In this document: positions 21,195-47,385 of the stretch, in pieces | Numbering within the stretch: position 1 is the first letter of the stretch | How the letters are laid out: each line of letters starts with the position of its first letter | DNA from: Subtercola boreus | GTDB lineage: Bacteria > Actinomycetota > Actinomycetes > Actinomycetales > Microbacteriaceae | Assembly (NCBI RefSeq): GCF_006716115.1 | Contig: NZ_VFOO01000001.1 | Span: 310,001-374,000 of the forward strand | Reading direction: 5' to 3' | DNA length: 64,000 nt | The notes under the pieces: model-generated | What the model was told of the DNA's origin: nothing | Databases searched by the model: none | What the model saw: the letters and a program-made list of their open reading frames with translations, nothing else | Position numbers and translations under genes: made by a program

Positions 21195-22355
21195 TCAGGT
21201 GGGGTCGCTCATCGGTCGTCCGGCGGCCCAGACGGCGTCGACGGTCCAGTCTGTGCCGAGCAGCACGACATCCGCCGCGTAACCCGGCGCGAGATAACCG
21301 AGCGTCTCATCGAGGCCGAGGGCCCGTGCCGGTGAGGCCGTCAGGGCGCGCACCGCGAGCACCGGGTCCGTCTCGGAGTCGAAGATCGCGGAGCGGAGCG
21401 CGACATCCTGGGTCAGCGTCGAGCCCGCGATGGTGGTCGTTCCCGACAGCATGGCCCGGCCATCCGAGACCGACACATTCAGGTCACCCAGCTTGTAGTG
21501 CCCGTCGACCGAACCTGCAGCGGCCATGGCGTCGGTGATCAGGAGGATGCGCATCGGGGCCGCGAAGAACGCGACCCGGGCGACCTCCGGATGCACGTGG
21601 AACCCGTCGAGGATGAGCTCGAGGGCCACGCGCGGATCGCCGAGGGCCGCCGTGACCGGCCCCGGTTCCCGGTGCTTGATGCCCGGCATCGCGTTGAAGG
21701 CATGGGTCAGCAGGGTGGCGCCGCGGTCGAACGCCTCCTTGGTGAGTCGGAAGTCGGCGTCGGTGTGCCCGACCCCCACGGTGACCCCGGCAGCGACGAA
21801 ACGGTCGATCGCGTCGAGGGCTCCCGTCAGTTCGGGGGCGAGGGTGACCTGGCGGATGGTGCCTCGGCCGGCCGCGAGGAAGGTGTCGACCAGTTCCGCG
21901 GTCGGAGTGCGGAGGTGGGCCGGATTGTGGGCGCCCCGGTGGTTGCGGGCGAGGAAGGGCCCCTCGAGGTGCGATCCCAGGATGAGCGGGTCGGCCTCGA
22001 CGAGGTCGGCGATCAGCTCGAGGCTCTCGCAGAGCACCTCCACCGGGTTGGCCACCAGGCTGATGACCGAGCGGGTCGTTCCGTGCGCGCGGTGCATCGC
22101 GAGTGCGCCCTGGATGGCCTCGGTCCCGTTGTCGAACGAGAACCCGCCGCCGCCGTGGCTGTGCACGTCGATGAAGCCGGGTGTGAGCCAACGGCCGGCC
22201 GCGTTCACGACGACGGCATTCTCGGCGGTGGACCAGCCGTGCCAGCCGGTGCCGGTGCCGGTGGCGGCAAGGGTGCTGCCGGTGAAGGCGAGCCAGAAGT
22301 CTTCGACGACGCCGTCGGCGTCGACCTTCACAGCGGAATGGATGACGACGGTCAT
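21195..22355 (-). CDS. nagA: N-acetylglucosamine-6-phosphate deacetylase
   Basis: A 386-residue amidohydrolase converting GlcNAc-6-P to GlcN-6-P and acetate, in amino-sugar catabolism and wall recycling. Metal and catalytic motifs: GFIDVHSHGGGG, the Glu in SHLEGPFL, His in VGVGHTDAD, THAFNAM, and the catalytic Asp in LLITDAM. Length is normal. The start ATG overlaps the TGA of the upstream YrdB-type gene by four bases. Confidence 0.93.
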   Translation of the reverse strand: MTVVIHSAVKVDADGVVEDFWLAFTGSTLAATGTGTGWHGWSTAENAVVVNAAGRWLTPGFIDVHSHGGGGFSFDNGTEAIQGALAMHRAHGTTRSVISLVANPVEVLCESLELIADLVEADPLILGSHLEGPFLARNHRGAHNPAHLRTPTAELVDTFLAAGRGTIRQVTLAPELTGALDAIDRFVAAGVTVGVGHTDADFRLTKEAFDRGATLLTHAFNAMPGIKHREPGPVTAALGDPRVALELILDGFHVHPEVARVAFFAAPMRILLITDAMAAAGSVDGHYKLGDLNVSVSDGRAMLSGTTTIAGSTLTQDVALRSAIFDSETDPVLAVRALTASPARALGLDETLGYLAPGYAADVVLLGTDWTVDAVWAAGRPMSDPT

Positions 22356-22708
22356 GCGAACTCCTTGCGGCCTGAGATGATGCCGCTGACGACGGCGAGG
22401 ATGCCGAACAGCGCGGCCACGATCCACTGGCCGATGACGAGCCAGGCCAGGGCGGCCGACCCCATGATCACGATCTCGACGAGCGCTTTGCCGAACGCGT
22501 CGAGGTGGAACACGGCCCGCGGGGAACGGAACAGCCCCCACAGCACGATCGCGAAGAGCGGGGCGCCGATTCCGAAGGCCCAGTTCCAGAGCGGGGGCCA
22601 GGCCAGGAAGCCCCACAACCCGATGGAGAAGAACGCGAACAGCTCGAGCAGGAACCGGAGCACGTCGTTCGGGCCGAATCGCGGCGGAGCGCCCTGGTCG
22701 GTATTCAC
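22352..22708 (-). CDS. YrdB/DUF2568 family small membrane protein
   Basis: A 118-residue protein with four hydrophobic segments (LLELFAFFSIGLWGFLAW, WAFGIGAPLFAIVLWGLF, VEIVIMGSAALAWLVIG, WIVAALFGILAVVSGII), matching the DUF2568/YrdB family of unknown function. It begins with GTG at 22708, seven bases after the -10-like TACTAT (minus strand), so probably leaderless. Translationally coupled to nagA. Confidence 0.8.
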   Translation of the reverse strand: MNTDQGAPPRFGPNDVLRFLLELFAFFSIGLWGFLAWPPLWNWAFGIGAPLFAIVLWGLFRSPRAVFHLDAFGKALVEIVIMGSAALAWLVIGQWIVAALFGILAVVSGIISGRKEFA

Positions 22709-24134: not shown

Positions 24135-26453
24135 TCAGCCGACCAGGAAGGCGGCGCTCGTCGATGGCCCGTGGCGGCCGGAGTCCGGATCCACGTAGCG
24201 AATCGACACGGTGACCCGTGTGCCGGCGGGCGTGCCGCTGTCGAGGCTGAAATCGTCGCCGGAATTGCCGTCGGGGTTCAGGACGAACGTGCGGGGGTCG
24301 CTCCGGCCGTCGAGCAGCTGCTCGAAGAATGCCCCCGGCACCCCGTGCGAGTAGACGGTGTAGCCCGAGCCGCCGATGGTGCTCTCCGGTTGGGGACTGA
24401 GGAGCGAGATCGGTTCCAGCGTCACGCTGGTGGCGAGGCCGAGAGGGGAACGGATGCCGTCGGTCGACACTTGGCGGAGGGAGAGCCGGTGCTCGCCGAA
24501 CCCGAGGTCGGGGTAGTCGGAGACCTCGAAGCTGCCGTCTTCGGCGTCGGCTGTGATGTGGGCGACGACCACCCCGGTCGGGGTGCTTTCGGCGCGAACG
24601 CGTGATGCGGTCACCGGGGACGCGCTGCCGATGAGGTCGACGACCTCGACCGTGGCGCCGGGCTCGGCCTGCCCCGAGATGACGGGGAACAGCAACCCGC
24701 TCGGATCGGCGGCGATCTCGTAGAGCGGAGCGTCTGGCACGGAGGGGGGCGGCACGGAGGGGGGAGGGGTCGGGGGTGTCGTGGGAGGCGGTGTGGTGGG
24801 CGGCGGAGTGGGCGGCGGAGTCACCGGTGGGGTGGTCGTGACCGGGGGAGTCGCGGCAGGCGCGGGAGTCTGCGAGGGCATCGGGGTCGGTTGACCTGCG
24901 CCTGCACCGGACTCGCTCGGCACGATCGGAGCCAGCGCGTCGCGCGGGGGAACAGGGCTCCCCGGATCGAGGGCCCGGGTGCCGAACCCTGTGGGAACCG
25001 AAGATCCGCTGCCGGCAGAACCCGAAGCTGCGCTCAGGGAGCCTGCCGCCGCGCCAGCGCCCGTAGCCGAACCCGAGCCGGCGGCCGGAACCGCGGGGGA
25101 CCCGGCGCCCTGTGCGGCCGAGGCCGCGCCGTTCTGGGCGTTCGGCTGCGTCGTGCCACGGTCGCCACCGGCCTGGGGTGAACTGGTCGCGGGCGCTGCC
25201 GCCTCGACGGTCTGCGGGGCGGGGGACACGATGAGGGGGGAGAGGAGGAACGCTGCGCCGACCGCGGCAGCGGTCGCCAGTGCGAATCCGACGGCGTTCC
25301 TCGCGCGGGGGAAGGCCGTGACGAGCATCCGGCGCGCTCCGCCGGTCGTCATGCGGGCGGCGCGGACGACGTGGGTCGGAACCGTGGTCGCGGAAGAGGT
25401 TCCGGCATTCGCCGCGCCAGCCGCCTCGGATCCAGCCGGGACAGGCTGCGCGACCGGCGCGGTGTGCGCGACGGAAGCCGCGTGCACGACAGGTGCGGCG
25501 TGCACGACGGGTGCCGCGTTCGCGACAGATGCGCCGCTCGACACCGCGCCCGACCCCGACCCCAACCCGGCGCCAGCACCAGAACCGGATGCCGCAGCGG
25601 CGCCGCCGTGGCCCAGAACCCCTGCAGCAGTCGCTGCCGCCGCGCTGCCGCCACCCTGCATCGAGACCGTGTAGGCCGCCGCTCCGGCGACCCCTGCCAC
25701 GAGGGGGAGGAGCACCAGCGCGAGCCGGGAGCCCACGTCTCTGGCCTCCTCGCCGACGATGCTGCACGACGTGCACGCTGCCAGGTGCTGCTGCAACTTG
25801 CGGGTCTCGCGGGTGCCGAGACTGCCTCGCGTGTAGGAACCGAGTTTCTCGATGACCGCGGCGCACTCGGTGTCTGCCGCGCGCACCAGGTGCGCCTGGA
25901 TCCAGGCCTGCCTGAGCCCCTCCCGCGCCCGGAAGGTCAGGGCGGAGACGGCGTTCGAGGTCATGCCGAGCAGGGGTGCGATCTCATGCGAGGCCATCTG
26001 CTCCACCTCGCTGTACCAGAGCGCCTCCTGCCAGCGGGTCGGGAGACTCCGGAACGCCTGCGCCGTCAGGCTCTTGTCGAGCGCGAGGATGGTCTCGTTC
26101 TCTTCGCTGGTGGGGTCGGCGAGGGCGTCGAGCTCGTCGCTCGTGTCGATCTGGGCGCCACGTTTCAGCTGCATCGCGACGTTGCGGATCGTGCTGAAGA
26201 GATACGGCCGGAAGGCGCTTGTCGGCCCGCCACCGTTCCGGATGGCCTGCAGCACCTTCGCGAAGCTCTCGGAGACGATGTCGTCGGCATCGGCGGTGAA
26301 ACTCCGCGCCACCGTGCGCCCGGCGCGGGAGTGCCTGTTCCAGAGTTCGGCGAACGCGCGGGAGTCGCCTGCCCGGGTGCGCTCGACGAGATCGAGATCG
26401 CTCGGACCCGTCTCGTCGTCGGGCACGGCGTGCGCGCCGATCGGGTCACTCAT
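24135..26453 (-). CDS. ECF sigma factor fused to zinc-binding anti-sigma-like module, membrane segments and Ig-like C-terminus
   Basis: A 772-residue single chain. Residues 33-99 form sigma region 2 (DADDIVSESFAKVLQAIR, YLFSTIRNVAMQLKR). Residues 134-185 form sigma region 4 with a helix-turn-helix (SHEIAPLLGMTSNAVSALTFRAREGLRQ). Residues 195-235 hold a ZAS-type motif: C197, then H223-x3-C227-x2-C230. Hydrophobic segments lie at about 243-263 and 388-409, separated by an Ala/Gly/Ser/His-rich linker. A Pro/Thr-rich tract (about 520-560) leads to an Ig-like beta region (PVISGQAEPGATVEVVDL) running to the C-terminus. The architecture suggests a sigma factor tethered to its own inhibitor and to an extracytoplasmic sensor. 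ATG at 26453 has GGAAGG eight bases upstream; a GTG at 26462 is less well placed. Confidence 0.88.
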   Translation of the reverse strand: MSDPIGAHAVPDDETGPSDLDLVERTRAGDSRAFAELWNRHSRAGRTVARSFTADADDIVSESFAKVLQAIRNGGGPTSAFRPYLFSTIRNVAMQLKRGAQIDTSDELDALADPTSEENETILALDKSLTAQAFRSLPTRWQEALWYSEVEQMASHEIAPLLGMTSNAVSALTFRAREGLRQAWIQAHLVRAADTECAAVIEKLGSYTRGSLGTRETRKLQQHLAACTSCSIVGEEARDVGSRLALVLLPLVAGVAGAAAYTVSMQGGGSAAAATAAGVLGHGGAAAASGSGAGAGLGSGSGAVSSGASVANAAPVVHAAPVVHAASVAHTAPVAQPVPAGSEAAGAANAGTSSATTVPTHVVRAARMTTGGARRMLVTAFPRARNAVGFALATAAAVGAAFLLSPLIVSPAPQTVEAAAPATSSPQAGGDRGTTQPNAQNGAASAAQGAGSPAVPAAGSGSATGAGAAAGSLSAASGSAGSGSSVPTGFGTRALDPGSPVPPRDALAPIVPSESGAGAGQPTPMPSQTPAPAATPPVTTTPPVTPPPTPPPTTPPPTTPPTPPPSVPPPSVPDAPLYEIAADPSGLLFPVISGQAEPGATVEVVDLIGSASPVTASRVRAESTPTGVVVAHITADAEDGSFEVSDYPDLGFGEHRLSLRQVSTDGIRSPLGLATSVTLEPISLLSPQPESTIGGSGYTVYSHGVPGAFFEQLLDGRSDPRTFVLNPDGNSGDDFSLDSGTPAGTRVTVSIRYVDPDSGRHGPSTSAAFLVG

Positions 26454-26534
26454 CGCCAACACCTTCCGGTCGAGACATCCTCATTAATGTATCACTGAAC
26501 AATACTCATCAGCACAGGGGAAAAGCAACGCTGC

Positions 26535-26540
26535 TATGCT
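26535..26540 (+). promoter_or_regulatory. Candidate -10 of the glyA transcript
   Basis: TATGCT lies just upstream of the ZTP riboswitch core, putting transcription start at about 26546, where the first paired strand of the riboswitch begins. No good -35 is seen. Confidence 0.4.
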
Positions 26541-26543
26541 GAG

Positions 26544-26625
26544 CCCGTCGCAACTGGCGTTCAGATGGTCACCATCGGGAAGCGACTGACACGGATTCGG
26601 CCGCTCGCCTGGGTCGCTACGGAAC
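26544..26625 (+). promoter_or_regulatory. ZTP (pfl) riboswitch upstream of glyA
   Basis: The conserved pfl elements occur in order: GTCGCAACTGGCG, a GATGG-TCA-CCATC hairpin (26564-26576), CGGGAAGCGAC closing the helix with GTCGC (26547-26551 pairs with GCGAC at 26582-26586), a linker, then the 3' CCGCTCGCCTGGGTCG element. ZTP riboswitches sense the purine intermediate ZMP/ZTP, which builds up when 10-formyl-tetrahydrofolate is short, and commonly control glyA. No terminator hairpin with a T-run follows, so control is more likely at translation; the glyA Shine-Dalgarno (AAGGAG) is about 35 bases downstream. Confidence 0.88.
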
Positions 26626-47312: not shown

Positions 47313-47385
47313 TGGGCCCCGTCGGGCTCGAACCGACGACCCACGGATTAAAAGTCCGATGCTCTACCAACTGAGCTAGAGGCCC
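47313..47385 (-). tRNA. tRNA-Lys (anticodon TTT)
   Basis: The minus strand gives a 73-base cloverleaf: acceptor GGGCCTC with discriminator A, D-arm AGCTCAGTTGGTAGAGC, anticodon loop CTTTTAA with anticodon TTT, and T-arm GTCGGTTCGAGCCCGAC. CCA is not encoded. Confidence 0.97.

What the first reader, a model, noticed from the sequence alone, without database searches (positions are those of the whole stretch)
24135..26453. One-chain sigma factor, zinc anti-sigma module, membrane segments and Ig-like sensor
Most ECF sigma factors are about 200 residues and are held by a separate membrane anti-sigma protein. Here sigma regions 2 and 4, a C197/H223-x3-C227-x2-C230 zinc motif, hydrophobic segments, a long low-complexity linker, a Pro/Thr tract and a beta-rich Ig-like C-terminus are one 772-residue polypeptide. 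It suggests a sigma factor that sits at the membrane, reads an outside signal through its own tail and is freed by proteolysis. No separate anti-sigma gene is adjacent; the neighbours are a convergent MFS gene and divergent glyA.
Basis: partly seen in the sequence, partly recalled or inferred. Interest (0 to 1): 0.8.

Follow-up and report, generated by a model that had tools for sequence, protein, structure and literature searches.

The report
Membrane sigma factor with built-in inhibitor
One protein of a soil-type actinobacterium carries a gene switch, its own inhibitor, a membrane anchor and an outside tail; the design is already described in Streptomyces, and here it proves to be a widespread family whose outside tails differ from lineage to lineage.

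Summary
Window 26453-24135 (minus) is one intact 772-residue ORF: ECF sigma regions 2 and 4, a zf-HC2 zinc anti-sigma domain, two hydrophobic segments, a Pro/Thr tract and two Ig-like beta domains. It is no assembly error: a counterpart without inner stops lies in each of the 11 other genomes of the genus (one cut by a contig end). Relatives occur in 59 of 150 genomes of the family and 141 of 394 of the class.

The architecture is not new: groups ECF48, ECF52 and ECF53 are described as ECF sigma factors fused to a zinc, membrane-bound anti-sigma part, with proteolytic release proposed (PMC8999054, PMC5826349).

Added here: (1) tails differ between lineages (NPCBM, ricin lectin, LamG, Ig-like); (2) charges and lectin tails favour the second hydrophobic segment as the only membrane span, tail outside; (3) the first is a nearly invariant, charge-free element 20 residues after the zinc site, where a class I anti-sigma has helix 4, and AlphaFold2 did not resolve it; (4) nagA lies within 5 kb in 60 of 69 Microbacteriaceae loci. 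Verdict: new member of a known kind.

The parts
24135..26453 (-). whole ORF, 772 aa, fused ECF sigma / zinc anti-sigma / membrane / Ig-like protein
   Evidence: kept as P0001
26157..26342 (-). sigma region 2 (res 38-99)
   Evidence: Pfam PF04542, 28.3 bits; fold matches to sigmaE-RseA 1or7 and others
25920..26060 (-). sigma region 4 (res 132-178)
   Evidence: Pfam PF08281 24.1 bits, just under cut-off; TIGR02937 over cut-off across 33-183
25764..25865 (-). zinc anti-sigma domain, zf-HC2 (res 197-230; H223-x3-C227-x2-C230 and C197)
   Evidence: PF13490 28.7 bits; H223, C227 and C230 invariant in 80 of 80 aligned rows
25665..25727 (-). hydrophobic segment 1 (res 243-263), charge-free element at the helix-4 position of the anti-sigma domain
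   Evidence: R243, P250 and G254 in 80 of 80 rows; Pro 20 residues after the last zinc Cys in 79 of 79 Microbacteriaceae loci and at +20 or +19 in 30 of 33 other rows; AlphaFold2 under pLDDT 50 here
25299..25655 (-). Ala/Gly-rich linker (res 267-385), read as cytosolic
   Evidence: composition; side inferred
25218..25292 (-). hydrophobic segment 2 (res 388-412), read as the single membrane span, N-in/C-out
   Evidence: KD19 2.11; four K/R and no D/E in the 20 residues before it, none and one in the 20 after it
24732..25217 (-). Ala/Gly/Ser then Pro/Thr stalk (res 413-574), read as outside
24138..24731 (-). two Ig/FnIII-like beta domains (res 575-772)
   Evidence: AlphaFold2 mean pLDDT 91.8; Foldseek PDB, 106 matches at E <= 1e-3
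26496..26508 (-). conserved TGAGTATTnTTCA element, candidate -10 region of the sigma gene (inferred)
   Evidence: exact in 9 of 12 genus genomes, with changes in the other 3; once in the whole genome

Best explanation
It is a one-piece membrane sigma factor. Residues 1-190 are a two-domain ECF sigma. Residues 197-232 are a zinc anti-sigma domain that holds the sigma part in cis. The charge-free segment 243-263 sits where class I anti-sigma factors have helix 4 and is best read as part of the inhibitory clamp rather than as a membrane crossing. A neutral linker leads to one membrane span (388-412, N-in/C-out), and a stalk carries two Ig-like domains outside the cell. A surface cue on the tail would start cleavage of the stalk and span (site-1, then site-2 type), and trimming of the anti-sigma part would free a sigma fragment of about 20-25 kDa. 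Shown here: the domain order, its conservation, the tail fold as a prediction, and the change of tail type between lineages. Inferred: topology, clamp role, outside signal, proteolysis. A tie to amino-sugar or cell-wall chemistry is a lead from gene order only.
For: Domains. Tail fold. Conserved in the genus: 12 of 12 genomes with the window's own counted, both hydrophobic segments in 12 of 12. Segment 2 as N-in/C-out: net charge of the 15 residues before it exceeds that of the 15 after it in 27 of 30 rows outside the best-80 set, equal in 3, less in 0 (mean +1.77 against -2.03); the window's own flanks agree. Tails that act on surfaces in relatives: NPCBM, ricin lectin, LamG. Segment 1 is weaker as a span in those 30 rows (13 of 30 under KD 1.6; segment 2 never), one relative has two Asp in it (L154), and it is as conserved as sigma region 2 (0.80 against 0.78). 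In print: three-helix bundle on sigma4, Hx3Cx2C over helices 2-3, helix 4 on sigma2 (PMC7406223 passages); fused groups ECF48/52/53, and IutY shown to be processed by Prc and RseP (PMC8999054 passages). The genome has one M50 site-2 type protease.
Against: AlphaFold2 of 1-275 gave pTM 0.40 and under pLDDT 50 over 242-262, so neither the clamp nor any contact of segment 1 with sigma is shown. Segment 1 is charge-free over a long run (median 32 of 35 residues in 79 Microbacteriaceae loci), which is membrane-like. In the Microbacteriaceae set the K/R asymmetry around segment 2 is not general: more before in 9, equal in 60, fewer in 11 of 80 rows. The 30 rows are not independent (L131 and L151 are one locus, many are of one family). 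Pfam names no domain in the window's tail. No cleavage, signal or regulon is known for this protein. For SCO4117 the sigma-only mutant was still delayed in sporulation and its own transcript rose only 1.3-fold (PMC5826349).
Confidence: 0.62

Rival explanations
1. Both hydrophobic segments cross the membrane as a hairpin, so the Pro/Thr tract and Ig-like tail lie inside the cell and act as a cytosolic interaction domain; the loop 267-385 is outside.
For: Both segments reach TM-like hydrophobicity in 12 of 12 genus genomes; segment 1 is charge-free; the loop has almost no charge in Microbacteriaceae (1.0 K/R and 0.9 D/E per 100 residues). The review counts one to two transmembrane helices in ECF48/52/53 (PMC8999054 passages).
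Against: Charges around segment 2 point to N-in in 27 of 30 other rows; relatives carry lectin and LamG tails, which suit the outside; segment 1 is weak as a span in 13 of 30 of those rows and unusually conserved for a lipid-facing helix.
Confidence: 0.14
2. Release is by a change of shape, not by proteolysis: zinc or thiol chemistry at C197/H223/C227/C230, phosphorylation, or ligand-driven movement frees the sigma part while it stays at the membrane.
For: Zinc anti-sigma domains can be redox sensors, and this is over-represented in soluble ones (PMC7406223 passages). SCO4117 is reported as phosphorylated at Ser15 and Thr231 (PMC5826349 discussion).
Against: A membrane-bound sigma could reach promoters only with difficulty; IutY, the one fused case tested, is cut (PMC8999054 passages); about half of membrane-bound class I anti-sigmas carry the zinc motif, which is taken as structural there.
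Confidence: 0.18
3. The gene is a decayed or non-functional sigma fusion, or an assembly or frame artefact.
For: Broken or short relatives exist: L163 (frame broken), L083 (342 aa, no second segment), L158 and L159 (short forms).
Against: No inner stop in any of the 12 genus genomes, with 80-95% identity of the sigma-plus-zinc part to the window in the orthologues; sigma regions are the best conserved part (0.78 and 0.86); same gene order in other genera.
Confidence: 0.03

Closest known systems
ECF52 group, SCO4117 of Streptomyces coelicolor (PMC5826349: abstract, introduction, results part 1 of 2 and discussion seen)
   Same: ECF sigma domain (TIGR02937), zf-HC2, membrane region, Pro-rich stretch and C-terminal outside-type domain in one protein; homologous sigma and anti-sigma core (the window aligns with L145-L147, 38-41% identical over about 250-275 columns).
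   Different: SCO4117 ends in an NPCBM/SMART00776 carbohydrate module; the window ends in two Ig-like domains with no Pfam match. In the tree the NPCBM rows form their own clade away from the window. SCO4117 lies beside atrA; the window's gene lies beside glyA and near nagA.
ECF48 and ECF53 groups (PMC8999054 passages)
   Same: Actinobacterial ECF sigma factors with a fused zinc anti-sigma part and one to two membrane helices; proteolytic release expected.
   Different: No reference sequence of either group was available to compare, so which group number fits the window is open.
IutY of Pseudomonas putida, ECF243 (PMC8999054 passages)
   Same: ECF sigma fused to its membrane anti-sigma part; sigma freed by intramembrane proteolysis (experimentally shown there, as the review tells).
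   Different: Iron-siderophore cell-surface signalling with an outer membrane; not compared by sequence here.
Two-gene ECF sigma / zinc anti-sigma pair in the same genome (L165: sigma 167 aa, anti-sigma 257 aa)
   Same: Zinc motif on the inner side and one membrane span with a basic inner flank.
   Different: Separate genes; the span begins 57 residues after the zinc motif and no hydrophobic element follows the zinc site (best KD19 1.21 there).

Membership tests
ECF-type sigma-70 factor | sigma regions 2 and 4 without region 3 | tested here: met
   PF04542 over cut-off; PF08281 1.6 bits under cut-off; TIGR02937 over cut-off; Foldseek to sigmaE, AlgU, SigL
ECF-type sigma-70 factor | directs transcription with core RNA polymerase | not testable with these tools
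   needs in vitro or reporter assay
Zinc class I anti-sigma domain (ASDI/ZAS) | Hx3Cx2C motif spanning helices 2 and 3 | tested here: met
   zf-HC2 197-230; predicted helices 197-208, 214-226, 228-253
Zinc class I anti-sigma domain (ASDI/ZAS) | helix 4 bound to sigma region 2 | tested here: inconclusive
   segment 1 lies at that place but is under pLDDT 50 in the model
ECF52 | ECF sigma + zinc finger + membrane region + Pro-rich extension in one protein | tested here: met
ECF52 | carbohydrate-binding (NPCBM / SMART00776) C-terminal domain | tested here: not met
   no Pfam family in the window's tail at E <= 0.01, while L145-L147 hit NPCBM; tail folds Ig-like
ECF52 | falls in the ECF52 clade of the sigma tree | tested here: not met
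   58-row tree: NPCBM rows form a clade that does not hold the window; the NPCBM rows stand for ECF52 by their tail, and L146 and L147 also by the TetR neighbour; SCO4117 itself was not in the set
ECF48 / ECF53 | assignment by the ECF classification models | not testable with these tools
   no such models or reference sequences at hand
Sigma factors freed by regulated intramembrane proteolysis | cleavage by a site-2 protease | not testable with these tools
   only that one M50 gene exists in the genome

The most novel reading that the evidence does not exclude
The family-wide, charge-free element just after the zinc site is a new kind of inhibitory part: an in-cis helix 4 that shuttles between the sigma domain and the membrane surface, so that an ECF sigma is held by its own hydrophobic clamp and let go when an exchangeable surface tail reports on the envelope or on amino-sugar polymers (nagA neighbours here, the atrA neighbour in Streptomyces). 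That would make these proteins a modular class of one-piece outside-to-promoter switches in Actinomycetia.
Probability: 0.2. Interest if true: 0.65.

Novelty: new member of a known kind. Interest (0 to 1): 0.4.

Why it matters
One gene that holds sensor, membrane span, inhibitor and sigma factor is the shortest route from an outside cue to a promoter. If the tails are as exchangeable as the lineages suggest, the family is a natural set of sensor swaps on one core, and SCO4117 is the only member named as characterised in the papers seen. The gene order gives a testable lead (amino sugars). The conserved element after the zinc site gives a defined target for asking how a sigma factor is held by an inhibitor in the same chain.

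Tried and rejected
Assembly or frame artefact: rejected. Uniqueness of the architecture: rejected by the literature and by the spread. A plain two-span topology: not excluded, but disfavoured. AlphaFold2 as arbiter of segment 1: failed, low confidence there. Assignment to a numbered ECF group: tried through the tail and a tree; ECF52 not met, ECF48/ECF53 not testable. A sigma-type promoter of its own: the upstream block conserved in the genus proved to be a ZTP riboswitch of glyA; the short element nearer the sigma gene occurs once in the genome and looks like a -10 region, so no set of target promoters came from it. A nagA gene that moved around the sigma gene while staying linked: rejected, since the upstream and downstream nagA genes are two separate clades; the linkage is old gene order of two paralogues, weaker evidence than repeated relinking. 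A crude neighbour clustering by longest ORFs mixed in shadow ORFs and was replaced by tblastn. My note said the 13-base element is in 12 of 12 Subtercola; recounted it is exact in 9 of 12.

Rows dropped before counts: L065 (in-frame stop five codons into the match) from A2; eight loci (L029, L063, L065, L077, L081, L083, L085, L089) from the tail set as cut or short; 11 of 80 loci without both flanks from the gene-order count; the rows without zinc motif (L163 first piece, L164 sigma-only) or too short (L129, L158, L159). The class search scored only 6 candidates a genome for the genomes listed, so its count is a lower bound.

Full report
WHAT IS THERE. The frame 26453..24135 on the minus strand is one uninterrupted ORF of 772 residues. 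Pfam finds Sigma70_r2 (38-99), Sigma70_r4_2 (132-178, 24.1 bits against a cut-off of 25.7) and zf-HC2 (197-230). TIGR02937 sigma70-ECF is over its cut-off. Hydrophobic segments peak at 245-263 and 391-409; residues 521-580 are 47% Pro and 22% Thr. AlphaFold2 on residues 575-772 with 21 related tails gave two all-beta domains, mean pLDDT 91.8, pTM 0.83. Foldseek against the PDB gave 106 matches at E <= 1e-3, headed by the FnIII protein RbmA and followed by FnIII, adhesin and cadherin domains; whole-query TM-scores are low (about 0.3), so this supports the Ig/FnIII class of fold and no more.

NOT AN ARTEFACT. All 12 genomes of the genus searched, the window's own among them, have a match without inner stops, in frames of 557 to 910 residues; the 557-residue one is cut by a contig end. 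Both hydrophobic segments are found in 12 of 12. Named relatives of highest identity are Subtercola, so the window is from Subtercola or very near it. In genome contigs 309 of 325 pattern matches encode a relative, of which the best 80 were kept. In the family 59 of 150 genomes (43 of 85 genera) match at E <= 1e-20; in the class 141 of 394 genomes (34 of 138 genera) at E <= 1e-25, a lower bound since few candidates a genome were scored.

ALREADY DESCRIBED. The review PMC8999054 (passages) says that ECF48, ECF52 and ECF53 of Actinobacteria are C-terminal fusions with a zinc anti-sigma part and one to two transmembrane helices, expected to be activated by proteolysis, with SCO4117 the best understood. 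PMC5826349 (abstract, introduction, results part 1 of 2, discussion) gives SCO4117 the order sigma, zinc finger, membrane region, Pro-rich stretch, carbohydrate module, and shows effects on development; cleavage is proposed, not shown. PMC10766802 (passages) says that some ECF52 and ECF53 proteins carry glycosyl hydrolase or carbohydrate-binding domains.

THE TAILS CHANGE, THE CORE STAYS. Of 18 fusion proteins scanned whole with Pfam, the C-terminal part hits NPCBM in three (L145-L147), I-set plus Ricin_B_lectin in two (L149, L150), Laminin_G_3 in one (L164), Big_6 in one (L162), Big_13 in one (L046) and the PT disordered repeat in one (L157), each over its cut-off; nine show no tail family over its cut-off (L061, L148, L151, L153-L156, L160, L161). 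Of 73 Microbacteriaceae tails (window and 72 loci), 19 match Big_6 and 17 Big_13 at E <= 0.01; the window matches none. A 58-row tree of the core puts the Microbacteriaceae rows apart from a 29-row group of other families (100/98) and keeps the NPCBM rows in a clade of their own; several rows have long branches, and L163 is a broken copy. L146 and L147 have a TetR gene directly upstream on the same strand, as SCO4117 has atrA (PMC5826349), so they stand for ECF52 here.

TOPOLOGY. The sigma part must be inside. If both hydrophobic segments crossed, the tail would be inside too. In 30 rows outside the best-80 set, the 15 residues before segment 2 carry a higher net charge than the 15 after it in 27, equal in 3, lower in 0 (mean +1.77 and -2.03); segment 2 is always over KD 1.6, segment 1 is under 1.6 in 13 of 30. 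Lectin and LamG tails in relatives suit the outside. The window's own segment 2 has four K/R and no D/E in the 20 residues before it, and none and one in the 20 after. Against this: in the 80-row Microbacteriaceae set K/R are more frequent before segment 2 in only 9, equal in 60, fewer in 11, and segment 1 lies in a long charge-free run. I take one span (segment 2), tail outside, as the better reading.

SEGMENT 1. It follows the zinc site at a fixed distance: Pro at +20 from the last Cys in 79 of 79 Microbacteriaceae loci with the motif, and at +20 (26) or +19 (4) in 30 of 33 other rows. R243, P250 and G254 are the same in 80 of 80 rows, and its mean conservation (0.80) equals that of sigma region 2 (0.78) and exceeds that of the zinc domain (0.71). 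Class I anti-sigmas have a three-helix bundle on sigma4, the Hx3Cx2C motif over helices 2-3, and helix 4 on sigma2 (PMC7406223 passages), so segment 1 is at the helix-4 place. A two-gene pair in the same genome has no such element: its span begins 57 residues after the zinc motif. AlphaFold2 did not resolve segment 1. The clamp role is therefore an inference.

SURROUNDINGS. In 69 of 80 loci with both flanks: nagA within 5 kb in 60, always on the sigma strand (41 upstream, 19 downstream); a 118-residue membrane-type ORF in 54; glyA divergent in 50; MFS in 31; against 12 for the epimerase and 7 for the isocitrate dehydrogenase gene, though these two lie near the edge of the flank. The window's nagA is over the TIGR00221 cut-off. 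Upstream and downstream nagA genes are two clades, and one locus (L050) has both, so this is old gene order rather than repeated relinking. In Streptomyces AtrA activates the GlcNAc permease gene nagE2 (PMC4398421 passages) and atrA adjoins SCO4117 (PMC5826349). I hold amino-sugar or wall sensing as a lead only. Listings showed no paper on the nagA link or on segment 1; no search was made for the motif letters.

HOW IT WORKS. Best reading: sigma held in cis by the zinc domain and segment 1 under the membrane, tail outside, release by stepwise cleavage. Shown: anatomy, conservation, tail variety. Inferred: everything about signal, cleavage and regulon. The genome has one M50 protease gene, as do the 14 control genomes, so this is only compatible.

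VERDICT. Confirmed observation, known kind, new member with an Ig-like tail. Interest 0.4.

Noticed in passing
window 26540-26621 (+): ZMP/ZTP riboswitch (RF01750, 51.5 bits, gathering 39) upstream of glyA; it explains the strongly conserved block between glyA and the sigma gene. Found also in 6 of 12 related loci scanned.
   Followed up: yes
window 21195-22370 (-), and 60 of 69 related loci: nagA (TIGR00221 over cut-off) near the sigma gene; two ancient nagA paralogues, one on each side, of which L050 keeps both.
   Followed up: partly
genome G014 (same family), G029: 17 and 7 matches to the sigma/anti-sigma core in genomes of 3.8 and 3.0 Mb: a large local expansion of this kind of sigma factor.
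   Followed up: no
L163 (G144 C1:2131000-2139500): A relative whose sigma part and zinc/membrane part lie in different frames: broken copy or sequence error; only described.
   Followed up: no
L158, L159 (G271, G301); L083: Short forms: sigma plus zinc domain with no long tail (317 and 277 aa frames), and a Microbacterium copy that ends at 342 aa before the second segment.
   Followed up: no
L164:3241-3945: A sigma-only relative (234 aa frame) about 4 kb from a full fusion copy with a LamG tail in the same genome.
   Followed up: no
L077: Record titled Planococcus sp. APC 4015 holds a Microbacteriaceae-like copy (56% identity); the title may be a misnomer or the contig foreign.
   Followed up: no
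window 47313-47385 (-): tRNA gene (RF00005, 68.5 bits).
   Followed up: no
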